Source: Gaertneriomyces semiglobifer
Taxonomy: Eukaryota; Chytridiomycota; Chytridiomycetes; Spizellomycetales; Spizellomycetaceae
Length of the DNA stretch: 64,000 nucleotides
NCBI GenBank assembly: GCA_025558075.1
Contig: JAHLKF010000006.1
Location: 186,001 to 250,000, forward strand
Reading direction: 5' to 3'
Shown one piece after another: positions 1-15,275 of this stretch (its first letter is position 1; each line of letters starts with the position of its first letter). Under the pieces are notes generated by a model. It was not told the origin of the DNA. It made no database searches and saw only the letters and a list, made by a program, of their open reading frames with translations. Made by a program: the position numbers and the translations under genes.

Positions 1-3000
1 TCACCCAAGGCGAGTGGGAGACCTTCAGTAATGGATGAGTTCACAAAGATCCATCCCTGCGGGAGTACACTTGCTGGACTCCCCAATCCCATCAATTTAA
101 CATTTGCTTCCAACCCATGCGCGGCGATAGTACGCATACACTCTGTAGTATACGGCGGCTCTTTCTCCGGCGACCCGTAGATTAAAAGTTGATAATTCGT
201 CAGCTTGAAATCCCGCACAATAATACGGGCCGCGTTGATGGCGTTCATAACGTCTTTCACGGGGGAAATATGTGAAAGCATTACAGCCGTCGGAACATCT
301 GCTTGCAGCTTGGGGTTCGGCTGGAACCGGGCAGTGTCCATTCCGTTGAGAACTGGCACGACTCGACGAGAAGTTTCGGATGCCTCGCGGGTATTGCCGT
401 ATTTGCCACCTGCGATCCAAATCTCCCAATGCACGTTCTGGATGGATGTGCACGGAGTTATGTAGTCCGCTCTGTTACACGGGAAAGACCGCATCAGCAA
501 CCGGAAATTCTCAGCATTAGCCTGGTTTGAGCTTACCTAGCGTACACCACCCTGGCAACCAGTCTCGTCAGCCCGGCAAACATGCACTGCACAAATTTTG
601 GCATCACGATGTCGGTACACAGCCCAAACAAGCGTTCTCTCCAGAGAATTCCATGATCCCAGACAATAAATGTGCTGCCATGAACCTTCTTGGCAACAAC
701 ACCTAACACAGCCTGAATACCATGATGCGACGCATGTACCACTGGACGGTTCGGAATCTCAACCGTCAAAGGAAGCAGCAAACGCGATATCAGATCAAAT
801 AACATTTCAATGTGACGTAGCGTAGGGGTTTCGGTCCGATAAAGCTTTCCTTCGTTGAAGTGTATCCACGACGTTTCAAGAAGTTTTCGAATCCATGTTT
901 CTTGGCTCGTGACGTGGTTCCAAGCTGTAGTCCAATCACACTCTTGGAAGAAATAATAGATCTGGACGAAGATGTCTTCAAAATCAGGCACATCCTCAGT
1001 CGCGATGTGATCGGTAAAAGCGGCATCGATTAGCCTTTCAATCAGCGGAACAAATCGTTCCTCCACAAGCTTCGTGGTGGTCTTCCTAGAACGGGCTTGA
1101 AGCTCCCTATACGGTACGTTGCGCAGGATATTCTCATTCGGCGTTCCAAAGTCCAAGTCCCATAAAGGGATGTACTTGATTGAGTCAATGTGGCGTTCAA
1201 TGGGGTAATCCTTTTGCCCAAGTTCGGGCATACCCAGCTCTGCCAAAGAGGTCCAACGAATTCTTTCGATACCATCAATGACATCCCGCCGGCAAGAGCC
1301 AACTCCACCTCCTCCAGTTGGCCACGTTCCACTATCAAGATTGATGACACGAAGAAGTTCCTCAGTTTGACTCCGCCCTTCTGCGCTCCAATTTTCCTCA
1401 TCCGGCTCTCCTTCGGGAAAAATGCGATCTGCATCACCGCCACATCCAAGTATCCATAAGTCTGAAAAGCGAATGCAAAAATGTGTTCTTGTCCACGGCT
1501 GATCCAACATCTGAAGCTCTGCTGTGATCCGGCACTTTTCCTGACGAAGCAGATTCTGAGCAGACTGCTTATCACCCAGATCTCGTCTCCACCAGTACGC
1601 TTGGAGCAATGGATGTGATCGCGATAAGCGTTCATCCAAATCACGAGCAAACACTCCAGGAACCAAACCTGACCTCCATGCCGCCCAGAGGTATTCTCGC
1701 TGAGTCACGATGTTACTTTCCGCAGACCAAAACTCCGTCGCCAGAGGGGGTGCGCTCCATCCTGAGCGAATTGTGCGGGATTTTAATTCCTGAGTGAACA
1801 TGTCGGAACTCATCACAAAACATAGTGGGGGTTGGCTTTTCAGGACCCCCCATGTGTCATCGATGATTTCTCGTGGCGTCGGCACGGCATACTCTCTCTC
1901 TCCAGGGATACGATGCACGCTCTCATACCTTATATGATGAGGATGTGAATAATCCACTTTGGTAACAACTGCACTCTCCATGCCCAAATTGCGCCGCATC
2001 AACCGAATTTCCAAAAATCGCGGAATATCCCCAGGCTTCCGATATGCCTCTGCGTAATCGACTTCGATCTTCCAGCTTGGGCCAGCGCATGAATAATTGG
2101 CTGCATCAGGGGTGTATCCACCGCTGTAGCTAAATTGCGCCTCGATGGTTATCATCGCCTGAGCGGCTGCGCTGTACCGCCTTGACGTGGAGTCGGTCAC
2201 AACAACGTGCCCATGTACCCTTTTGAACGTATGAATCTCAATTGGGTCGCTACGCTGGGCATCCCGAATCGAAGCGGCGAGACCGCAAAGAATGAACCGC
2301 TTCTCAGGAACCAAGGTAGTGCTGCCAGCCGGGTAGGTGTAAAAATGTGTCTCCTTGATGCCGCCGCTCTTGTCAAACTGGAGTTCCTTGGTAATTCTCC
2401 ATTGTACCTTCCCAGAAACGGTCACAGACTCGTACGTTGCCTGCGATGATGGTTTCTCCTTGCCGTGCTTCCACTCATCCACATTCGGGGTGTTCAAAGT
2501 ATACCGATTAACCTCTAACTTATCTGCACCATATTGGAGAAGCCCAACGCTACTCATCGCTGGACCACAAACGGTTTCAACTCGAAACATACGGTGCACA
2601 TCGCGCTCTGTTGTTTCATAACGGAACGTGCGGCGGAAGCCGTTTTTCATTCTGTCAAGCGTCTGTCGGATCAAGGGGTCTCGCCGGTAGATGGCACTGC
2701 TGTGTAAGAAGCGCAGCAGTCTTCGACTGATCCAATAAACAGGAGCGAGTGGATACCGAAGGCCAACCCCATACGATGAACTTTCCTTGCCGAAGCGTTC
2801 GTCGGCTGTCAGCGCCAGATAGAGAGCAATTCTCGTGTCAAGGACGCCAATGGTGATGCGTTCGAGCAGCGAAGGAGTCGGCGGCGCTTGCGGCCGACGT
2901 ACTCGGGCAATTGTTGGCAGCGTGGGAGTGGTAAAACGGCCATTTTCAGAATACCGTACCATTTCACGAATTCTCAACGCGACCATTGACGACAAAAAAC

Positions 3001-6000
3001 ATTGAGCCACACGCAAACGGACATGCTCGACCGTTTGAAGCGAATCAGCTGCACCACGCGGGATGAGATGCCACTTGAAAGAATGTGGAACAGAAGCCAT
3101 CCTCTTCGTCAGACTTCGTGGAAGCTCACCAAGCTATTGACAGAATTAGGACCAAGATATTTAATGATAAGTGTGGCCCAGACGCGACAACTTACATCAA
3201 ACCCATCTTGGAAAGATCTCCACCAGATTCGTGACAAGTCAACAAACCAAACCCTCTCGCGCTGCGTGAATTTAGTATTCCACATGCGGTCGACATCAAT
3301 TCCGAGGGCCGCTTTTCCTTGCACAACATTTCGCGAGTTGTGCCATAAGATAGCGCGACTCGTGTCATCGATGCGTTGAGTAGCTACACGCCGCGGAACT
3401 GGTACATCAACGAGACGTTGACTCCAGGCACCTACCGATACCCCCACCAGTAATTCCGAGACACAGGCGGTGGCATGAGACTGACCTCGAGATTCAAGGA
3501 ACTCGTGAATAAGCGCTTCCAGCAACAGTTGAAAGTCGTCGATTTCAGAAAGATCGTCATCCTTGGGCGGTACGAACACATAAAGCATTCCCGAACGATG
3601 CTCTCGCACAGATATTGCAGAGTACCGGACACCAGCTGCAGTGAGAGGTTTCTTATTCCGCAACATTACTATGCGCGCTGATGCCATTTCTTCCATGAGC
3701 TCATGTAACAGAGCCAACGCCGACGGGAATGCAGAATGAATAATGTGCCCGGCCGGAAGGGTCGCGATTTGTTCTCTGCTCCTTTGTATGGATTCGCGTA
3801 TGATCCAGTTGCCACCTAATTCGCTTTGAATCCGCACGGCGTCTTTTATGTTTGACATGAGCTCGGCTGCTAATCTATCTCTCGCCGCACTGGTATAAGC
3901 AGTCTCTGTTTGTCCCATATACCGTTGTCCCGATGAGCTTAAAGCTGGAGAAACACGCACCCGATAATGTACGCTCCGCAGCTTTTCTTTTTGCTGACTG
4001 ATAATGCAGCCTAACGCAAAGATCCAGCCGGTAATGGCTGTCGCCAACGATGCGTACTCCACAGCTCCAGTGACATGAAGGATTGCGGTGGTAGCCCCAA
4101 TACCAATCAGGAGGGCGACCGTCATGAAGACGTTCACTGCCACTTCAAGGGACGTTATGAACAGCTTGATGAAAAGACCAATAAGTAAGCCGGTGAAACC
4201 AAACGACGATAAACCGAATATGGTCATCTTCAATCCTTGGTCCTGTCGGTCGCCCAGGAAGAGCACAGCTAAGGTTATAGGAATCAAGAAAAGTACTAGC
4301 GCGAACAAAAACCGTCGGAGTTCGGAAGCGAAAATCCACTGGACGGCATCCTTGTGATTCTCGATGAGCGAATTGGGCCCCTTGCTCTTTCCGACGCTAA
4401 GCATTGGTATTCTTTTGTGATGCTCATAGTAGCGCGCTAAAGTCAGCTCAAGCACTCCAGATGTCAATAAAAGGAACACAGTAGCGCCCAGTAGACTGTC
4501 AGTGTTCGACGCCCCGATGACATCATTGCGTAAGAACATCACGGCCCTCCCCGTGACGAAGAGCACAGTCCATTTGTCGACGAATAGCAGGATGAAGTAC
4601 AGGAACCCAAAACAGATGGCCGGAAACTCGTTGTCAAAGAGGATACCTCCGCGGTTCATTTTCTCCACCGTGAACTTCTTCTTGAGTTCAACAATTCCCT
4701 GCTTGATCAAGGTGTCCCATTCCCCGGTGAACGGCTTGGGCGCATGAACCCCAAGTCGCTGAATGTACCATTTCATGAGCAGGTTTTCCCAGTACCAGGT
4801 GCTGAGTCGCTCCTTGACGCTCTCCATGGTCTCGTCATCCGCCCTCTTCCGTTCCATTGCCTCCACGGTTACATTAGCGTACCACTCTAGGGCGTCCCGT
4901 TCCCATCGACGAGTCGCCCGCGCCACCGCTCCCTGATCGTCTGCGCCAGATTGCTGTGGTGGCGGATAGCTCACCTTATACAACTCCAGAATTTGACGTT
5001 TTTGGGGGACTTTGACGATATGTGGCCAACGTAAATACTGTCCTGTCACGCTTGTGTACGTAAAAGCCATATATACCGTCGCCAAAAGCAAAGATCCAAT
5101 ATACAATGCGAACGGAACCAGCCGATTGATGTCTTTCGGAAGCACAAATCGACAAAGGAACGCGTTGGGTATCAAAATCAATAGCATCTTGAGAATTGCT
5201 AAGGGGCCGCGAGAATGATAGAAGTACTCGTCTGGTTCTCGCAATATAACTAGTACGCTGAAAAATAACATAAACATGCTACAAAGTGGAAGTTAGCAAA
5301 CGGATGCATTATACAGACGAGTCTGATTCCATACCCGAAAACTACGGAATAAAGTAATCCCAGCGCTGAAAGGACGATATCGCCAGTTCGGTAGAAGTTC
5401 ACGCCACCCAGGATAATCCCTGCTGCCGTGAAGATAATAATCGCCGCTGACAATCGCCGGTAAAACGCCGACACCATCAAGGGTATGCTCTTCTGAAAGT
5501 AATAGTATGTCACTGTCCGACCAATGGAGTTCATTACCGCCCCTGTGATAGGGAACATGACTAGAATGAACCCGAATACGAGGGTAAGTAAAACCTTCAG
5601 CACGACATCAACAACAATGAGTTACCTAGGAGTACCAAGCTAGTAAGTTCTCTTGTCTCTGCATCCATTCTGTCGGTTGCGAAGATACCAGATCCCAATG
5701 AAGCCAAAAGGATAATATCCAGAAAGATAGGGTACACGTAGATATAAGCGTTGAGAATACTTTTGCGGAAAGCGGTCATTCCAGAATCAGCCGCGTCTTC
5801 GGTTGACTCGGCTCCTGCTAGGACATTGCCGTCGTCAATGTCTTTAGAAATGTCCGCACTATCAGAAACAGGGACCGGATGCTGTCCTCTTGACTTTTCG
5901 ATGTGATTTAGTTCTTTCAAGGAAGTCGCACGCAGGATGGGATGTATAATTTCGCCCATTGTCAAACTGTCCACGCCAAATACGGTAACCAAATTTTTGT

Positions 6001-9000
6001 TAGTCGTCACCATCTCCAGAGATACTGCAACCTGATCTGCCTCTGGCAGGAAAAGCGGATTCATGTTCATAAGTTCGATGATAAGTGTCTCATATCCTAC
6101 GCGACGGATAGCTTTCCAGAATACGGCAAAGATATAGCAGAGGGTCCAAAGCTCCGCAGGACCACCAAGCATAGGTGATACAGGTAGCGTGCCTCCACGT
6201 TTTCGCATCTCTGCTTCGATTGCTTTCGCTACAGCACAGATTCGCTTTCGACCGTGTGCCTGCAAGGTGCACCTAGAGACGAACTGCACCATCCGAGTTT
6301 CGATCGCATTGTCTGGGGTATAGCCGGCGCTGAGCCCTCGACGAACGCTATCCAGATATTCTCGTTGGTCCACCAGCCTCCATTCGGCCCGACGACGAAG
6401 ATAACAGCACACAGCGGAGAGATAAGAAGCGCAATTCGCGGACAGGATAGTCCCGATAGCGCATCGGAGCTCATCCAAGACGGGTTCCGAATCGCGCACG
6501 ATGGCTAGCAACTCGGATGGGCAAGAGGTGTCAACCTGCTGATTGAGGCGCGCGGGAATTGGCAAAGTCAAGGACTGGACCTCCAGTGTCTGGGCTTCGT
6601 ACATTGCTTCGATGACGATACATCTTCTGGTTTCCCATCCAAGTCGCCACTTCATGAACAAATGAAGAACAACCTCACCCCATCGCAGGCTGTTATCCGC
6701 AATAAACATATGTAGCACGCCGTCTCTCTCTTCAGCTAATCCCCATATTTGAATGTGCGGGCTATTGTTTGTCGCCGACAAGAATGCCGCTTTCGTCGGC
6801 AACCAAACCGAAATCTTTCCTTCGACTAAAAATTGACCGAGTTCTGTCAGCGCAGCTTTCACAGTCGCTTCACTCAGAAGTGACATAAGCCAAGAGGTAG
6901 CTCGATTTGGTCGCTCCACCATATCGTTTAACAATTTCACAAATGACATAAAATCAGGCAGCTCGTCTCCATTTTTGCTCGCATCAGCGTCGTCGATATT
7001 ATAACGTGCGGAGGCCAGCAGCTTCTTATCTAAGAGTTCAAACATGACGGTTAACACGGCATTACAAACGCCATTCCGGTATCGCGGTCCTTGCCAATCT
7101 AGGCCAAAATCATATACGGATGGTATCAGCGGCTCAGTAGCGGCCTGGTCGTCACTCCCAGTTCTCAAAAGGTCACCAGCGCCGGATGCCCGTCGTGATT
7201 GCGTGATCTGCTTGATTTCGACATAACTGTCGGGTTCCGGTAAGAGCGGGTTGGAGGCCATCAGGTCATCATCACACTCGGGGATACCATCGGTATAAGC
7301 GCCCTCCCTTAACGCGTCCAAAAAGTCTCTCGGAATACTCGAAGCAGGATTGACAACATTTGCCCATCCTTCATGTGTGATTTCCAGTCCGACTTTGCGT
7401 GCCCGTAGGAAGGCGATATTGATATCCACGGTGTCCTTACAGCGAAGCACATCATCATTGCTAGCCATTTCGAAAATGCCATCTTCTGACACTTCGTTGA
7501 ATTCCATCGGTTTTACATCAGAAACTTGATCGTACCCCAAGGAAGTGGTGTACCACGGGACGCATTTCAAACCAGTGGCCCATTGAACGTGTGATCGGAG
7601 CAGCGCCGCACTGGGCGTTGACGGTATGGCCTCCGAATTCATAATGAGAAAATCGCTTCGGAGTGAAAACTCAATGGAAAGCTTGGTCGTGAATGCTTTC
7701 AGAGCTTGCCGTTCTTCACTGTTGGTACACACGTGCGTAAGCATGTGCTTGGCACACCGACAAAATCACGATCACGGAACTCACCCAAAAAGCATCTTAC
7801 GGCCGCCGCGACCATCCATGAAAACATTCGCAACCAGAAGACCGTTAATTTCGTCCCGAATACGACCCCATCCGATGTCAGTATCCAAGAAAATAAGCGG
7901 TTGGTGCCACTCTTCATCTGTCGACTCACGCAACGCATGAACTAGTTTAGCAATTTTCTCAGCCGCGAGGTCCTTGGAATAGGCAGATAACCATTTCTTG
8001 CAATCTGTAAACAAAAATCCAGACACTGCGCTGGGCATCAACGCTAGTCCTTGCGCTAGATAGGTCGTAACATGTTGTGTAAAGCTCGTTCCGGCAGTCT
8101 GTACAGTGTGCTTATACTCTTCGTAGAGGGAGTTGATGTTTACGGATACAACGAGGTGGGATACTCTAGCCAAAACGATTGAGCAAAAGTTCTCGGAAAG
8201 CGGGGTAGTGTCCATGTCCCGTTCAACCAAATCTTTCAAGGAAGTCGCGGACCGAGACCGCCAGAATCTGCTGATGCGAGACAGCCTGGATCCTACAGAG
8301 GACGAAGTCTGAAAACTCCGGATTGACGACGTGGAAGAAGACTTGTGCAGAGCCCGTGGCGGTGGTTTGACGTCCTAAAGTCGGTTATGGTGAGCGGGTG
8401 GGAAACAGTAGGAAATATCAGTCTAAACTTACAGCATCGAAGCTGCCCACGGAGGTGGTCCCAAGAGCATCATAACTTTGAGAGTGACTGAGACCCCCAC
8501 AGAGACGTGTTGCATACGGAGTTTCCCACAAATCGCGCAAGTTCTGAAAATCTAATACGAGCAGATCTATAGAATTCCACTCGGAACTCCTTTCCAGCAG
8601 GGTACTGCAGTCGCCAAGATAGATAGCAAAGCTTCCAACTTTCGCTGCATCGAATCTAGTGGTATCAAAGAAATAACCTTCTGCGGGCGCTGCGTATCCA
8701 AGTCTTCCTAAGACAGCGGCGAGTGATTTTTTGGGACGCTGGAACATCGAGCGTAGGGAATGCACGCTCCCACGAGGAGAAGATGCCCGAGTGCTGGTGG
8801 GACTTGCTCTGAAAGAGCCACTGCCTGGACTGTCATCGCCGGTAACAGTAGCAACACTTGTATCGATCTTTGAGAGGCTCGGTCTTCTTGAATCTTGCGA
8901 CTGTCGCAGCGGTGATGGCGCAAACCTCTGCGACGGCCGTGCTGTTAACCGTCCCCTACTTTGGCTCTGCAAATCCGTCGGTGGCGAACTTCGCGAAGGG

Positions 9001-9047
9001 GTTCGCTCCAAGGTCAGGTCCCAACTGTCACGAATTTCCCTGTCCAT
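1..9047 (-). CDS. gt4c: Giant PelF-like GT4 glycosyltransferase with polytopic membrane domain (GAG synthase type), 3' end beyond window
   Basis: Seven exons join in frame: 9047-8433, 8374-7785, 7718-5626, 5560-5335, 5278-3196, 3133-537, 471-1, giving at least 2,891 residues with the C-terminus off the left edge. The N-terminal ~1,070 residues are soluble. Several hydrophobic segments follow between about residues 1,060 and 1,650 (for example around 4,020-4,300 and 4,430-4,620 on the DNA). The last part is a DUF3492/PelF-like GT4 unit: HASHHG near 720, WDHGILWRERL near 640, and in the last exon an EGLPLALGE element, the E-x7-E retaining-GT4 signature. The same architecture is known for Gt4c/Gtb3 of Aspergillus fumigatus, the predicted polymerase and exporter of galactosaminogalactan, and PelF is the bacterial Pel counterpart. 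The adjacent epimerase and Agd3 gene support this role. The start is the first ATG in the frame; an upstream exon is not excluded. Confidence 0.85.
472..536 (-). other. Intron 6 of the gt4c-like gene (65 nt)
   Basis: Donor GTAAGC and acceptor AACAG. Joining gives R-A-D-Y-I-T-P, continuing the GT4 fold directly into the E-x7-E part of the catalytic domain. The other introns of this gene are 3134-3195, 5279-5334, 5561-5625, 7719-7784 and 8375-8432. Confidence 0.85.
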
Positions 9048-10046
9048 TATAGTTACAGTGTCCTTAAGGAGACGAGGGTATTCCGCCAAAGGCCTACGGC
9101 CAAGCTACCCGAGAGTATTCTTACGGTCAGAATGATATTATGATACTGTTACAGAGGAAGAAGGATGTACAAACTCATATGCCAAAACCACGCTCGGAGC
9201 TTTGGCTGTTCTATAATAAGCGAGTGCCGCTCCGTGGAACGAATATGATCTCTTTCTCCGAGATCGTGCTTGGCTGCTGCCAAACGAGGCAGATTGAAGT
9301 GGTGGCGGCCCATGTCTGAGTTGCTGGTAGTGGTTTTAGTATTAAGCTTGCGATCGACTGACATTTTTGACATTTTTGAGCGTCGACGGGGTGGAGCTCG
9401 CCACCGGCAATACTTTGCATTTGGGTGTGGAACGCAATCACAATTATGAGCTACAAACTTCCGAAAATTGGAAAAAGGCAGCCCGGTTTTCAGCCTGAGA
9501 TCAACGATTCAACGTTTTTAGCGGGCTGCGCATTGGAAGCGCTCGGTCGGCAGGAAAAATGGGATTAAAGTAAGCTCTTGGCATGTAACTCCACCCGGAC
9601 CTCATCCATGGCGCTCGATAATTAAGTGTTACATTGAATAGTATCGATCAAAAACGGGGCCTTTTTGCGAGCATGAAAGCGGGTGGCATTGGATGGTATG
9701 TATTTGTACTCATAATGCCTACGCTCTGATGCGAGCACATAAGTGCGAGGTTTCATCAAACGGGTTAAGACGTTATGACAACTGACGTTTTGCCAGTTGA
9801 ATATTGAACAATGGGAGACGGAAGCATCAAAATGAAAGAGCTCCAAACGATGATATATTGAAAATGAGGAGAGTTCTATAATGCTATACACCAAAATGTC
9901 ATTCAAACTGCCAGATCTAGCGAACCACAGTGGGGGCAAGGGAATAATGTCGGGCATAACCGGATTGGTGCCCTCAAAGGAGCAGAGAACAAAGCCATCG
10001 CACCCACATAAGCACGCACCAAAATATGTGCAAAGTAAGGTCATTG
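9048..10046. other. Intergenic, gt4c-like promoter side and uge 3' side
   Basis: About 1 kb between the start of the GT4 gene and the stop of the epimerase gene. Short open frames exist on both strands but none has protein-like composition. It should hold the promoter of the GT4 gene. I see no clear TATA box. Confidence 0.5.
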
Positions 10047-11392
10047 CTACCGCACTGCGACATTTCGCTGTATGTCATAGGCTGCACTTGGAAGTGCTGG
10101 TGCATCAAACTTGAGATCTTGAGAGGGTGTTCGGATATTTTCCTCCTCCGGCGTTGGAAGTGAGTCTGCGTCAGTTTGATGCTTCTGGGTAAGTTGAGAA
10201 AGGCGCTTGATTGGCATGCTCGCGGCCAGCAACTGCGATTGCGCAACTGCTGACGTATCCGCCAAAGTTGAATATCCAAGCGGGTTCTGTGTGGTCCAGT
10301 TCCAAGCGTCTCTGCACATTTCGGAAATCCCATGCGTAGCAACCCACCCCAAAATGTTGTTCGCTCGAGCCGGATTCGCGACAACCTGAGCGACATCACC
10401 TTGTCGTCGTGGCGCCGCAACCAACGGGATCGTCTGCCCGCTGACTCTTTCCATAGCATCCACCATTTGCAACACCGACGTGCCCTGGCCAGTACCCATG
10501 TTGATGATATCAGACCCGCCACCGTTCGTCAGCAGCTGATCAGCGTGAGCGAGCGCGGCGACGTGGCCACGGGCCAGGTCGACGACGTGAATAAAGTCGC
10601 GGACACCACTTCCATCCTGGGTTGGGTAATCAGTACCTGTCACTTCGAGAAATGATCGCTGTCGCAGAGCTGTGCGGAGAACAAAGGGCATAAGATTGCC
10701 AGGAGTACCCTTTGGATCTTCTCCGATGATGCCCGAGGGGTGGGCACCGACAGGGTTGAAATACCGAAGCATGACCGCACCCATACCGTTCGGCGACGTG
10801 ACCGCACACATATCGCGGATGATGGACTCGACGGCGAGCTTGGTCCGTCCATACGGGTTGATCGGGGAAGTGGGATGCGCTTCGGTGAGAAGACCATCCG
10901 TGGTCGTTGGGCTGCCGTAAACAGCGGCGGTCGAGGAGAAGACCAATCGTTGAACCCCAAACTTTTGCATTGTCTCCAGAAGGCAAAGAGATCCACCGAC
11001 ATTGACACGGTAGTACTCTAGCGGATTCTGAACCGATTCTGGGGCTGATTTCAAACCCGCAAAGTGGATGACAGCCCACACATTATGTGTCATGAAGATT
11101 TGGCTGAGCAGGCCGGTATCATGTAGCTCTCCCTTATAGAAGTATATCTTTCGAGATGTGAGGGCCGATACCCGTTTGAGGGACTCTTCGGTCGAGTTCG
11201 AAAGGTTGTCAAGTACCGACACTTCATAGCCGCACTAAGGACCAGTTCAGGTAAGTTGCTGTTGTCCGGCTATCATTGCAAAGCTTTACAAACCTCGAGA
11301 AGTTCAAGTACGCAATGGGAGCCGATATAGCCGGCACCACCCGTCACAAGGATGTGTTTTCCAGTTTGCAAATGAACAGGCATCTTGTTCAT
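10047..11392 (-). CDS. uge3: UDP-glucose/UDP-GlcNAc 4-epimerase
   Basis: Two exons, 11392-11294 and 11234-10047, give 428 residues. It is a short-chain dehydrogenase-fold epimerase. The NAD-binding GGAGYIGS lies near the N-terminus, followed by SSTAAVYG and the catalytic YGRTK (Y-x3-K), then the conserved RYFNPVGAHPSG and GVRDFIHVVDLA. It would interconvert UDP-Glc/UDP-Gal and possibly UDP-GlcNAc/UDP-GalNAc. Lying between the PelF-like synthase and the Agd3-like deacetylase on the same strand, it fits Uge3, which makes both precursors of galactosaminogalactan. The last ~80 residues after the fold are an unusual polar tail. The intron has a rare GTTTGT donor. The assignment to an epimerase is firm; the uge3 orthology rests on context. 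Confidence 0.93.
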
Positions 11393-12922
11393 CTTCAAGG
11401 TACTATCAAGGCAAAGCCAACACAGGAAGCCAGCCGGCACGGCACTTGGTTATATATGAAGGCCATTTTCGATTGACAGGAATTCGTTGTTTCGTTGAAT
11501 AACAGTTCTTCCCAGTGCAGGAAAACAAACCGTTAATCCTGCCAAAATCGGATGGGGAAACATTAACGTGGTGGCCAACGCCACTTTTCAATTTTTAGCA
11601 AATTCGGGTCTATTATTAGGTATTACCCGCGCAGTGCTAAGCAGTGCGCCGATGGTAAACATTTACTCACGCACGCTTTCTGTAGAATGGACTCAAGCTC
11701 AGCCGGCGTTTCCATTCTTACCTACCTCGGCCTCTCCAGCATGAGTGGGTGCAACAATGTGGCGGCCATCTGCATTGATGATTGCTTTAATTTCTTCGGA
11801 GAAAGAACGGAGCGGGACGGTTCCTAGTGCAACGTGTGCTATGGCATTATCTTTATTGATGCCCCAGACGCATCATCACATCAATGGAAGTGGGATATTG
11901 TTGGCCAGTAGTGTATGTTTGTTGAGCAACCACCGCCGGAAGTCGCGCCGTTTCAACTCCGCTGCTTAATAAGCAACCGAACCGCGCCACCCACGCGTTC
12001 CATGGCCAAAGTATTTGGCGGCTGTTGAAGATTGCGCTCGATCAGGAATAGGCGTCGACGGTGGCCATGATTAAGTTCAGACTAACACCGGTGTGATATT
12101 GATCGTGAGTGGCATCGGTATCGACGAACGACGACGACATGAGCCCATGTCGACTTGGGTTGTTCTTTGGTTTGTGATCAAAGCGGCCTGTCGAAAAAAG
12201 CAAATTTACGCAAATGCCTTGCTCCTGTGTAATTATACGCCCGCCGGCTGATGCCGGCAGTCGGCGGCAGAAGCATCTATTGCAACCAGCCATCTGCACG
12301 TGTAATAATCTAACTTTCTCGTTGCGCCGCAGATGTGGTAGTGGCGATGTTAGCAAAAAAAGAAAAGATCTTTTCATTGGCGGAGAGTGAAGCACCGAAA
12401 TTGCACAATGAATTTTCAATAATGGGAACGATTGCACAACCCAAATTTTTGTCGGGTGTTTCCAGGTAACAGCGATCTGTCGAACGGGTGAACGGGTTGC
12501 AGTATGGTAGGTGGCAAGCCATGAGATAGCAATGTTCTGGCGATAGCACATCGACCTCGCTGTTCCAATGCGGACAGCCCTTCTGTTTGTCGTGCGAAGA
12601 GCACAAAACGACAAGCTTCTCTTTTCCGCGTGCGAAGCACTTTGGTGCCGCGGACTGTGAGAACACTTTGCGCAACATGTCCGGCTGTTCACGCTGGTTG
12701 AGTGACAAGCTGTCAAAGTTCCCGCTGTTGTTCTTGTTGTTCGGAAGATCAGGATGCGCAGAAACAGAGAATGGTCAATCCAGCTCACAAAGCGATGAAC
12801 TCCTCTTTCTATTTAAAAGGGAATGTCATCGGACACTAATACATAATCAAAACTCCTACAGAGTCCCTAAGCAATTTTCTATCTCTAAAGCAGCAAAAAC
12901 CTTCAATGAACAGCAGATCTCA
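11393..12922. other. Intergenic 1.5 kb between uge and agd3-like genes
   Basis: No gene I can support. A minus-strand open frame at 12310-12708 has nine Cys residues but no recognisable domain, no signal peptide and no convincing splice partners. The uge promoter should be at its left end. Confidence 0.45.
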
Positions 12923-15275
12923 CTAGTTGATGAGAACTGGTGGAGAGAAAGTCATGGACACAGAAGCGCCCTTTCCAGCAAGCGGCACCCACACCGTCAA
13001 GGGGTCAACCCCAAGCTTCTCGTATGTGCAGGACGCGCAATTGCGTACAACGTTGCCGGGTACAGTTACCGGAACGGTGCAAGGCAACTGGGATGTAACC
13101 GTTGCGCCAATGTAATGTGTTGCGTTCTTGTTGACGCTGAGACTGTGTCCGCAGAAGTCGCGTTGTTGACGCTTGAGGAACGAGTCGTGGTGGTCTGTAG
13201 AAGGTGCGGACGTTTAGAGAACGATCACAAGCCTTTGCAGTAAATGAACGATCCGTGCTTACCATCCATGTGTGGAGACACAATGGGCCACTTGACAAGC
13301 TGGGTGAACCGGCCCACCACGTTTTCTGTCCACTGTTGGAGCAGACCAAGCTTGCCGGTTTTACCGCTGTTGGGAACGGTGACGGTGGGCAAGTCCGAAT
13401 TCCTTAGATTGGCCTGATGGAACATGTAACCATCATGACGAAGTTGCAGAAGCAACGATGTAACACGGTCGGTCTCGTATCGCATCAAGAAGTTCCAATC
13501 TTGGTCTCCCTGAATGTCGCGGTACATGTTATTGTACAGGACCATGTTCTGCTCTTGGGTGGTACAGTTGAAGTAAATCACCGTCGCTTGGCGCGGGATA
13601 ACGTTGAATCCATTGTAGTTGGCTGTCTGGGTAGAAGAAATCCAGGGCAAATACGGGTAGGTCGTGTTGGAGACATCTACTCGTGTTGCATCACTGACCG
13701 CGGTAGTAATGCCATTAGCGACCATGGAAGCCAAAGCGTCTCCATTGTGAAGCCCAGTAATCATTGGAGTGACCATGGCCTTCTTTGTGTACATCTTCGA
13801 CTTGGAAAGCCCAGAGACATCAGCAAAGTAGATGTTGAAGCTCAGCTCATTGTCAACGTCTTTGCGTGTAGCCAAATCCAGACCCATGTGGGTGTAGGTG
13901 TGACTGCACCAGAAGAACTCGTCCCGATTGGCGGTGTTCATTACAATTGCCCTGTACAATGGATCAAGAGACAATGTCAAAGCATTGTACAACTTGTACA
14001 TCGTAGTTTTGGCGGGCCAAAGGTTGGTACCAGTGCCCAAAGGCTTGATATAAGTGTAGTTGGGACCAGTCTCTGGCATGTCAATAGCCAAAGCCGGCAT
14101 CGTAGCTTGAAGCACACCGTTGCCATTGAAAGCATGCAGGACTCTGATACTTGATCCACTCGGTAAGCGTGCAGTAATGTCCTTCTGCCAGGCAATGACG
14201 TTTTGAGCATCAGTGGGTGTCAAGCGATATGCGAAGGTGGGAGTGGCTTCAGTTGCCAAAAATGTGTCATCGACTTGCAGTGAAAGATAGATGCGTCGGA
14301 AACCACTGTACATCTGCCGGGTACCCCAAGTGGTGTAGACATGACCGAGGAAGTTGGAGGTGGGTGACCACCAACCGAACGACATGTAAAATGCCATCTG
14401 CTCACGGCCGTCAGGGTGGTTGATTACGACACCGGCGACCGTTTCACCGGTAAAAGCACCATCAGAGCTAGGGCCGAAGACCGCAATGGCGGTGGTGGTG
14501 TTGGCGTTCGTAATCTTGGACGGGTAATGGAAGAGACCAGTGGTGTCAACGGTGGCGCCATCAACAATGCCAGATCGAGCGGAAAAGTCCGCCCCAAGCC
14601 TTAGGCTCAGCGGTTGAGTGACGCCGAAGTTGCAGCAGCCGAAAACCGCAGGGTTGGCGATTTCCGTTCCGTGGTCGAACTGTGGAGAATCATCAAGGGT
14701 GACCCGGCGGACTTTATGTTTGATCTCAAAGCTGAAGGAGTAATTGGGATGAGATCCATGATCGCTTGCACTGTGTACACAGTGCTAATATAAAAAACAA
14801 GAACAAGATAGAAAACGTACTCTGCCAACGCTTTCCATTGAGCATCAGTGAATGCACTTTTCCACACACCCGCATAGTCGTATTGCAGCAGACCCGGCTG
14901 TATTATGACCATGGAGTACTGGGCATTACCGGTGGCATCCTCAAGCGGAAGAGCATCAGCACGACCAGCCTGCGGAATTTCGACCTTGTCAAAAGGAATG
15001 CCATAAGCTGTCAATGTTAACTCGGGTGCTTGAGTGTCAGCAGAAGTCGTTTTCAAGAGAAGAACTCGCTGGCGAATTGTAGAAGTTCCAGCCAGGCTCC
15101 CGGTTGGTGCAGGGGCAGGAGGTTTTGTTGTAGTAGCCTTTGGTGGCGCGGGAGCCGGTTTTAGTGCATCGAGCAATCCACCGGCAGATACTACTGGCAG
15201 AATAGTAATAGCAAGGAGAGTCAACAACAAACAAGCCCAAAACGATTTTCGCTCATGTTTTCTAGATCGAGCCAT
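12923..15275 (-). CDS. agd3: Secreted polysaccharide deacetylase of the Agd3 type (CBM87 + CE18)
   Basis: Three exons, 15275-14821, 14770-13263 and 13194-12923, give 744 residues. The N-terminus is a signal peptide (basic start, Leu-rich core, ending VVSAGG). It is followed by a Pro/Thr linker (residues ~40-62), a beta-rich region matching the carbohydrate-binding part, and the deacetylase part. Catalytic-type motifs are QVDDTF (D319/D320), SHTYTH (H-x3-H near residue 440) and FHQANLR near 600. Agd3 partly removes acetyl groups from GalNAc in galactosaminogalactan, making the polymer cationic and adhesive. A. fumigatus Agd3 is about 800 residues, so this looks full length. It lies on the same strand as the synthase and epimerase. 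Splice junctions (phases 2 and 1) keep the frame to a TAG at 12923. Confidence 0.9.

What the first reader, a model, noticed from the sequence alone, without database searches (positions are those of the whole stretch)
1..15275. Galactosaminogalactan-type exopolysaccharide locus in a probably early-diverging fungus
Three consecutive same-strand genes encode a PelF-like GT4/polytopic membrane synthase, a UDP-glucose 4-epimerase and an Agd3-like deacetylase. In Aspergillus fumigatus the five-gene GAG cluster contains exactly these activities (gt4c, uge3, agd3) plus the hydrolases sph3 and ega3. Seeing the three-gene core here, beside genes typical of early-diverging fungi, suggests that the pathway and its clustering are old, or that it moved between fungi. 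It implies a cationic, partly deacetylated GalNAc/Gal adhesin.
Basis: partly seen in the sequence, partly recalled or inferred. Interest (0 to 1): 0.87.

Follow-up and report, generated by a model that had tools for sequence, protein, structure and literature searches.

The report
Sticky-sugar gene trio in a chytrid
A soil chytrid fungus carries, side by side, the three core genes that moulds use to make a sticky positively charged sugar coat, but its main enzyme belongs to a separate, little-known branch whose kin seem to include single-celled relatives of animals.

Summary
On the minus strand lie an intact AGD3 (CE18) deacetylase (15275-12923), a UDP-glucose 4-epimerase (11392-10047) and a 3019-aa PelF-like GT4 synthase (9047 to 385 bp beyond the left edge). 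The genome is Gaertneriomyces semiglobifer (Spizellomycetales). Deacetylase and synthase are single-locus; an Ega3-like GH114 exists but is unlinked; GH135 was not found, with a working control. The deacetylase is sister to ascomycete Agd3. The synthase is outside the ascomycete GAG-synthase clade (AU p=1e-7), in a second family (zoosporic and gut fungi) that groups, not firmly, with ichthyosporean and Corallochytrium proteins. The epimerase is not orthologous to the one ascomycete-cluster Uge3 compared (AU p=0.003). Deacetylase and synthase share a contig in 0 of 6 other comparable genomes (three informative). So the enzymes look old, but the clustering looks independently assembled. The published idea that a Pezizomycotina ancestor acquired the pathway does not account for these genes. 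Best reading: a GAG/Pel-like, partly deacetylated GalNAc polymer made by an uncharacterised sister synthase family. The product is inferred, not shown.

The parts
12923..15275 (-). AGD3: secreted CE18 deacetylase, exons 15275-14821, 14731-13263, 13194-12923; hydrophobic N-terminus (signal-like), CBM87, CE18 domain, C-terminal domain
   Evidence: Pfam PF25116/PF25115; 6nwz E=5.7e-94; D306 D307 H429 H433 R532 M588 H590 kept; model identical to NCBI P0001
10047..11392 (-). UGE: UDP-glucose (and possibly UDP-GlcNAc) 4-epimerase, exons 11392-11294 and 11234-10047, 428 aa
   Evidence: Pfam Epimerase; best solved-structure matches about 1e-111 (1ek5/1ek6, human GALE by recall); Val at the position of human C307 (significance recalled)
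1..9047 (-). GAG/Pel-like synthase, 3019 aa, 7 exons (9047-8433, 8374-7785, 7718-5626, 5560-5335, 5278-3196, 3133-537, 471 to 385 bp beyond the window edge)
   Evidence: GT4 + DUF3492; single locus in genome; many listed homologues of 2600-3300 aa
3997..5737 (-). membrane part of the synthase (about residues 1063-1602): six plus six hydrophobic segments around a soluble insert of about 150 aa
   Evidence: hydropathy; no significant profile match to PelG
3196..3885 (-). soluble linker region of the synthase with a nearly invariant HxxxE-x5-H-x6-E set (residues 1766-1783), no Pfam match in this exon
   Evidence: (25-row alignment)
1..1333 (-). PelF-like catalytic part of the synthase (DUF3492 then GT4; continues left of the window)
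   Evidence: profile match to bacterial PelF 99.9%, E=4e-32

Best explanation
This is a three-gene core for a GAG/Pel-like exopolysaccharide in a chytrid. The epimerase supplies UDP-GalNAc (and UDP-Gal). A single large membrane synthase with a PelF-like GT4 domain on the cytosolic side polymerises GalNAc-containing chains and passes them through its own membrane segments. The secreted AGD3 then removes some acetyl groups, giving a positively charged polymer that sticks cells to surfaces. Shown by sequence: gene structures, domains, kept active-site residues, single loci, adjacency. Inferred: substrate, export role, deacetylation and adhesion, by analogy with Aspergillus and Neurospora GAG and with Pel. 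The synthase belongs to a second eukaryotic family (B) that lies outside the ascomycete GAG-synthase family (A). The enzymes are ancient in zoosporic fungi, whereas their clustering here was most likely assembled independently of the ascomycete cluster, using one of two diverged chytrid epimerase copies.
For: Domains and active-site residues. GT part versus a bacterial PelF profile 99.9%, E=4e-32, while the ten other targets failed with it. Homologues from ascomycetes, chytrids, gut fungi, Gonapodya, Ichthyosporea and Corallochytrium match both GT4 and DUF3492, 15 of 15 scanned at E up to 5. Deacetylase tree: zoosporic fungi sister to ascomycetes, bacteria outside. Synthase tree rooted on three bacterial PelF: eukaryotic fusion synthases one clade 100/100, window inside the zoosporic clade 85/97; placing the window row with family A rejected p=1.2e-7, all chytrid synthases as one clade rejected p=9e-5. 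UGE tree: window UGE in a chytrid-only clade 100/99; joining it to an ascomycete-cluster Uge3 rejected p=0.0026. Ega3-like GH114 elsewhere in the genome, 2.4e-59 to 6oj1. Introns in all three genes and ordinary nuclear neighbours on a 1.08-Mb contig speak against recent bacterial transfer.
Against: I saw no chemistry, expression or mutant for any family-B synthase. The membrane part has no significant match to PelG, so the export role rests on hydropathy alone, and no structure model could be obtained. AGD3 differs from Agd3 at two of the binding positions compared: W292 is Phe and Y620 is Phe. Valine at the C307 position is found in both UGE copies, so it does not single this one out as the GalNAc epimerase. 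Phlyctochytrium arcticum has AGD3 and a UGE on contigs of the same length, 718,570 bp, and Obelidium three synthases and two UGEs at 487,203 bp, which could be remnants of older linkage. Only one ascomycete-cluster Uge3 was in the UGE tree, on a long branch, and the root of that tree is weak. AU groups were named after seeing the trees.
Confidence: 0.66

Rival explanations
1. The whole three-gene cluster is inherited from the fungal ancestor and was broken up in most chytrids; only the synthase and epimerase sequences have diverged or been replaced in place.
For: AGD3 tree follows the fungal groups. The order agd3-uge-synthase matches the ascomycete-like cluster on L016 apart from sph3 and orientation.
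Against: UGE orthology to the L016 Uge3 rejected, p=0.0026; synthase placement with ascomycetes rejected, p=1.2e-7; AGD3 and synthase on contigs of different length in 6 of 6 other genomes with both rows, three of them informative.
Confidence: 0.2
2. The cluster, or parts of it, reached this lineage by transfer from another fungus or from bacteria.
For: Family A itself contains three chytrid rows (Chytridiales JEL0842 twice, Blyttiomyces) that sit beside ascomycetes, so transfer between fungi is conceivable in general; bacteria hold distant AGD3 and PelF.
Against: The three window genes nest with other chytrids: AGD3 next to Spizellomyces and P. arcticum, synthase next to Spizellomyces and Fimicolochytrium, UGE inside a chytrid clade. 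Introns and ordinary nuclear flanks.
Confidence: 0.08
3. Family-B synthases make a different polymer (for example a wall glycan with another hexosamine), and AGD3 plus UGE beside it serve that polymer; it is not GAG or Pel.
For: The synthase lies outside the clade of the verified ascomycete GAG synthases. Several chytrids and the ichthyosporeans have family-B rows but no AGD3 row in the capped lists. The UGE copies are not told apart by the one specificity position checked.
Against: Here the synthase sits beside a CE18 deacetylase with kept active-site residues whose characterised relative acts on a GalNAc polymer, and the genome keeps an Ega3-like galactosaminidase.
Confidence: 0.25

Closest known systems
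Galactosaminogalactan (GAG) cluster of Aspergillus fumigatus and other Pezizomycotina (gtb3/gt4c, uge3, agd3, sph3, ega3)
   Same: Synthase of similar length and architecture, epimerase and CE18 deacetylase encoded together; an Ega3-like GH114 in the genome
   Different: Three genes not five; GH135 not found; GH114 unlinked; synthase outside the ascomycete clade; UGE not orthologous to the one cluster Uge3 compared; all three genes co-directional
Bacterial Pel system (PelF, PelG, PelA)
   Same: GT part matches PelF at profile level; same logic of synthase, export and partial deacetylation
   Different: One 3019-aa polypeptide; membrane part not recognisably PelG; CE18 deacetylase instead of PelA; a c-di-GMP receptor was not looked for
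Agd3 (CE18, PDB 6nwz)
   Same: CBM87 + CE18 + C-terminal domain; seven of seven residues needed for activity kept
   Different: Distant (the A. terreus relative P0028 is 37% identical); W292 and Y620 are Phe here
Uncharacterised family-B synthases of Spizellomyces, Rhizophlyctis, gut fungi and Gonapodya, with Ichthyosporea and Corallochytrium as probable kin
   Same: The family in whose clade the window gene lies
   Different: Among the listed genomes only Gaertneriomyces showed AGD3, UGE and synthase on one contig

Membership tests
GAG gene cluster (Lee 2016 selection rule: glycosyltransferase, epimerase, deacetylase, and either hydrolase or spherulin-like gene in one cluster) | synthase + epimerase + deacetylase adjacent | tested here: met
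GAG gene cluster (Lee 2016 selection rule: glycosyltransferase, epimerase, deacetylase, and either hydrolase or spherulin-like gene in one cluster) | hydrolase (GH114) or spherulin-like (GH135) gene in the same cluster | tested here: not met
   GH114 only at C12. PF12138 0 matches in this genome and 0 with an ascomycete-like Sph3 as query at E<=1, while the same family search finds 6 matching stretches in G001, the MAG that holds L016
GAG gene cluster (Lee 2016 selection rule: glycosyltransferase, epimerase, deacetylase, and either hydrolase or spherulin-like gene in one cluster) | cluster genes orthologous to the ascomycete ones | tested here: not met
   AGD3 is a sister clade, but the synthase is outside the ascomycete clade and the UGE is not orthologous to the one Uge3 compared
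GAG gene cluster (Lee 2016 selection rule: glycosyltransferase, epimerase, deacetylase, and either hydrolase or spherulin-like gene in one cluster) | product is an alpha-1,4 Gal/GalNAc/GalN polymer | not testable with these tools
   needs chemistry
CE18 / Agd3 | CBM87 + CE18 domains | tested here: met
   6nwz E=5.7e-94 with the large exon
CE18 / Agd3 | D377, D378, H510, H514, R613, M666, H668 | tested here: met
   7 of 7 kept as D306, D307, H429, H433, R532, M588, H590 (residue roles from passages of PMC7229062). Of the other four positions compared, W344 is kept, W292 and Y620 are Phe, and position 334 is Met in both
PelF-type GT4 | profile similarity to bacterial PelF over DUF3492 and GT4 | tested here: met
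   hhalign 99.9%, E=4.3e-32, 470 columns
Pel system | PelG-like exporter | tested here: inconclusive
   hhalign E=0.11 against three PelG-like frames named by eye; 12 hydrophobic segments in the window protein; structure jobs were not accepted
Uge3 (bifunctional epimerase) | small residue at the human C307 position | tested here: met
   Val, but also Val in the C7 paralogue; meaning of the position is recalled
Uge3 (bifunctional epimerase) | orthology to Uge3 | tested here: not met
   AU p=0.0026 with a single Uge3 row from L016

The most novel reading that the evidence does not exclude
Galactosaminan synthases of this giant PelF-fusion type split into two families before Fungi and the ichthyosporean/Corallochytrium line of Holozoa parted. 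Family A became the ascomycete GAG synthase. Family B, apparently never studied, persists in chytrids, gut fungi and single-celled relatives of animals, and was joined by the same deacetylase AGD3 in zoosporic fungi. GAG-like cationic coats would then be an ancestral opisthokont trait, and the ascomycete and chytrid gene clusters two independent assemblies of the same pathway.
Probability: 0.38. Interest if true: 0.8.

Novelty: new variant of a known kind. Interest (0 to 1): 0.6.

Why it matters
The published surveys I saw place the GAG cluster in Pezizomycotina plus one basidiomycete, weigh acquisition by a Pezizomycotina ancestor against origin in fungi, and call the origin of its patchy distribution open (PMC4817252, PMC7229062, PMC8224951; passages). 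This locus shows that synthase, deacetylase and galactosaminidase exist in a chytrid, in forms that the trees do not derive from Pezizomycotina, and that the gene cluster may have been assembled more than once. It also offers a partner pathway for the abundant GH114 genes of anaerobic gut fungi, whose role was left open in PMC6054980 (passages), since gut fungi have family-B synthase and AGD3 rows. Spizellomyces punctatus, which has AGD3 (and whose congener has the synthase), can be transformed (PMC7213984, abstract in the listing), so the question can be tested.

Tried and rejected
Old clustering and whole-cluster transfer were considered and rejected on the UGE and synthase trees. A hydrolase-like N-terminus of the synthase (similar to PelA, GH114 or Sph3) was suspected by eye and tested by hhalign: nothing. 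PelG similarity of the membrane part: nothing significant. (a tree) is void, because gapped alignment rows had overwritten some sequences; it was redone. One search failed on file format and was redone. My first AGD3 model had a wrong second-exon start and lacked exon 3; it was corrected, so the 97% identity is that of the wrong model. A genome-contig scan for bacterial full-length fusions gave 4 loci, none of them a bacterial fusion: two are fungal-looking contigs in prokaryote MAGs and two match the GT4 part only; the scan used just two short peptide patterns. PF11997 in the MAGs of L018 and L016 gave nothing. No structure model was obtained. Literature: the library holds no paper with both Amoebidium and galactosamine; a recalled 1965 report of galactosamine in Amoebidium walls could not be checked. 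A search for chytrid cysts and GalNAc lectins gave nothing that I followed. Of 12 papers holding galactosaminogalactan and chytrid I looked at passages of four (PMC7229062, PMC8778642, PMC6054980, PMC5653360).
Full report
What is there. The window is bases 186001-250000 of contig C6 (1,075,969 bp) in a 20.86-Mb assembly of 66 contigs. Its AGD3 protein is identical, after I corrected my gene model, to an NCBI protein of Gaertneriomyces semiglobifer from a contig of the same length; that species is a spizellomycetalean chytrid. Three genes run in the same direction on the minus strand. AGD3: 15275-12923, introns 14820-14732 and 13262-13195, 731 aa. UGE: 11392-10047, intron 11293-11235, 428 aa. 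Synthase: 9047 to 385 bp beyond the left edge, six introns of 56-66 bp, 3019 aa. The NCBI synthase model P0117 is the same to residue 1869 and ends at 1897, so it misses the catalytic part. Further left lies a CTNNBL1-like gene, and to the right a methylmalonyl-CoA mutase gene, so the locus sits among ordinary nuclear genes.

Domains. AGD3 has CBM87 and the CE18 domain and matches Agd3 (6nwz) at 5.7e-94 with its large exon alone. Residue roles are from passages of Bamford 2020, PMC7229062. Of 11 positions compared, the seven needed for activity are kept, W344 is kept, position 334 is Met in both, and W292 and Y620 are Phe here. The UGE's best solved-structure matches are 1ek5/1ek6 and relatives, human GALE by recall. 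It has Val where human GALE has Cys307; from memory, small residues there permit UDP-GlcNAc. The second UGE of the genome, at C7, also has Val, so the marker does not pick out one copy. The synthase has DUF3492 and GT4 at its C-terminus. Of 15 homologues scanned from ascomycetes, chytrids, gut fungi, Gonapodya, Ichthyosporea and Corallochytrium, 15 match both at E up to 5; in the Aspergillus row DUF3492 is only 0.11. A 29-row alignment of the synthase was cut into regions; its GT region matches a three-sequence bacterial PelF profile at 99.9%, E=4e-32, and none of ten other targets, AGD3 and UGE controls among them. The PelG and PelA labels in that test are mine, by eye and recall; PelF rests on DUF3492. 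The membrane region shows 12 hydrophobic stretches in the window protein (a family-mean scan gave 16 overlapping peaks), but no significant match to PelG (E=0.11). A linker region after it carries a nearly invariant HxxxE-x5-H-x6-E set, unexplained.

Rest of the pathway. Agd3_CE: one locus in the genome. DUF3492: one. A family-A synthase used as query finds the same locus only. GH114: one locus, on C12, 2.4e-59 to 6oj1, A. fumigatus Ega3; the motifs GVEPDNVDGY and NEEC align with GVDPDNVDGY and NEQC, which I take, by recall, to hold the catalytic acids. GH135: none by family, where the tool warned that its controls were silent. I therefore searched the MAG that holds L016, an ascomycete-like contig with a GAG cluster, and the family matched six stretches there, two of them on L016's contig; the L016 Sph3 as query found nothing in the chytrid at E<=1. 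So the core here is three genes, with GH114 unlinked and GH135 not found.

Deacetylase history. The search returned 113 proteins, 8000 candidates scored; 14 of the 113 bear names of zoosporic fungi (three gut-fungal, one Gonapodya), and none of the names shown is ichthyosporean, though many rows have no name. Trees used 49 of the 113 (quick) and 29 (careful; I left out among others the long-branched green-alga MAG row, one Piromyces row and two bacterial rows). In both, the bacterial rows are outside and the ascomycete rows one clade (100 each). In one search the alga row also falls outside fungi. Zoosporic fungi are sister to ascomycetes at 88/78 with Phlyctochytrium bullatum, 96/91 without it. 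The window row sits with Spizellomyces and P. arcticum. Bamford 2020 had already reported Agd3 homologues in five Chytridiomycota, so AGD3 in chytrids is not new.

Synthase history. The search listed 120 of 142 proteins. A 57-row tree (56 of the 120 plus the window) and a 44-row tree of the PelF-like part (40 listed, the window, three bacterial PelF) agree on two families. The bacterial rows come from the only 3 of 149 genomes of that phylum with a match; a PelG-like frame lies next to each. Family A: ascomycete synthases, with the relatives of A. fumigatus and Metarhizium whose clusters are verified in print, three chytrid rows and some metagenome rows (93/85). Family B: the window protein, Spizellomyces, Rhizophlyctis, Obelidium and other chytrids, gut fungi, Gonapodya and Olpidium (85/97). 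Ichthyosporea and Corallochytrium join B with 70/98 support, which is not firm; two metagenome rows stay unplaced. AU tests: window row with family A rejected, p=1.2e-7; all chytrid rows together, p=9e-5; family A with Ichthyosporea, p=0.012; all fungi without Ichthyosporea, p=0.009. The groups were named after seeing the trees. Sphaeroforma is named by NCBI; Ichthyophonus, Creolimax and Corallochytrium are my reading of EukProt prefixes. The four form one clade with Corallochytrium outermost (100/99), which argues against scattered contamination.

Epimerase history. Of 7476 proteins under 1e-80 the best 120 were listed. None of the names shown is an ascomycete, so the only ascomycete-cluster Uge3 in the tree is that of L016. 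In a 29-row tree (26 listed rows, the window UGE, the C7 copy, L016 Uge3) the window UGE lies in a chytrid-only clade of 14 rows (100/99), outside the 12 that hold the C7 copy (88/85); L016 Uge3 is elsewhere on a long branch, and joining them is rejected, p=0.0026. The root of that tree is weak (58/60) and the sampling is the weak point.

Is the adjacency shared? No chytrid contigs could be fetched, so I compared the contig lengths printed with each protein (longest contig per cluster). Seven genomes have both an AGD3 and a synthase row: G. semiglobifer shows one length; the other six (Fimicolochytrium, two Rhizophlyctis assemblies, Borealophlyctis, Gonapodya JEL0774, Anaeromyces) show different ones. 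Three of the six have AGD3 contigs of about 12 kb or less and say little; Fimicolochytrium (1.79 versus 1.02 Mb, UGE 0.81 Mb) is the clearest. Against my reading: P. arcticum has AGD3 and a UGE at 718,570 bp, and Obelidium three synthases and two UGEs at 487,203 bp; the distances are unknown.

Mechanism. UGE makes UDP-GalNAc and UDP-Gal; the synthase polymerises and probably exports; AGD3 deacetylates outside; the charge gives adhesion. Each step is inferred from Aspergillus and Neurospora GAG (PMC4817252, PMC11356417; passages) and from Pel. Since the verified GAG synthases that I know of are family A, the exact product of family B is open; the adjacent AGD3 and the Ega3-like enzyme favour a GalNAc/GalN polymer.

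Comparison with what is known. Lee 2016 found the cluster in 28 of more than 250 fungi, all Pezizomycotina but one, and weighed origin in fungi against acquisition by a Pezizomycotina ancestor; they also argued for convergence with bacterial systems (passages), which the PelF profile match does not favour for the GT domain. Mei 2021 calls the origin open (passages). The listings of searches showed no paper on a chytrid GAG cluster or an ichthyosporean synthase; several listings were capped, and the library is open-access only. The locus fails one part of Lee's rule (a hydrolase in the cluster) and orthology of two genes, so I do not file it as a member of the GAG cluster; it is a new variant that probably works like one.

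Noticed in passing
L016 (NYXK01000054.1, 'Deltaproteobacteria' MAG CPC1): Carries an intron-bearing ascomycete-like GAG cluster (agd3, uge3, sph3, synthase): apparently a fungal contig in a bacterial MAG.
   Followed up: partly
L017 (SUTP01000071.1, Methanosphaera MAG): Encodes a synthase fragment of this type on a 9.6-kb contig, probably fungal and mis-binned.
   Followed up: no
P0166, Zophobas morio LOC135146429: A beetle gene model that groups with ichthyosporean synthases, probably a symbiont or contaminant.
   Followed up: no
window 3196-3885, minus strand: Nearly invariant HxxxE-x5-H-x6-E set in the synthase linker region, no Pfam family: a possible metal site of unknown role.
   Followed up: partly
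   Followed up: no
NCBI protein P0117 (BC832DRAFT_404418): The public model of the synthase stops at residue 1897 and lacks the GT4 domain, apparently because an intron (3195-3134) was read through.
   Followed up: yes
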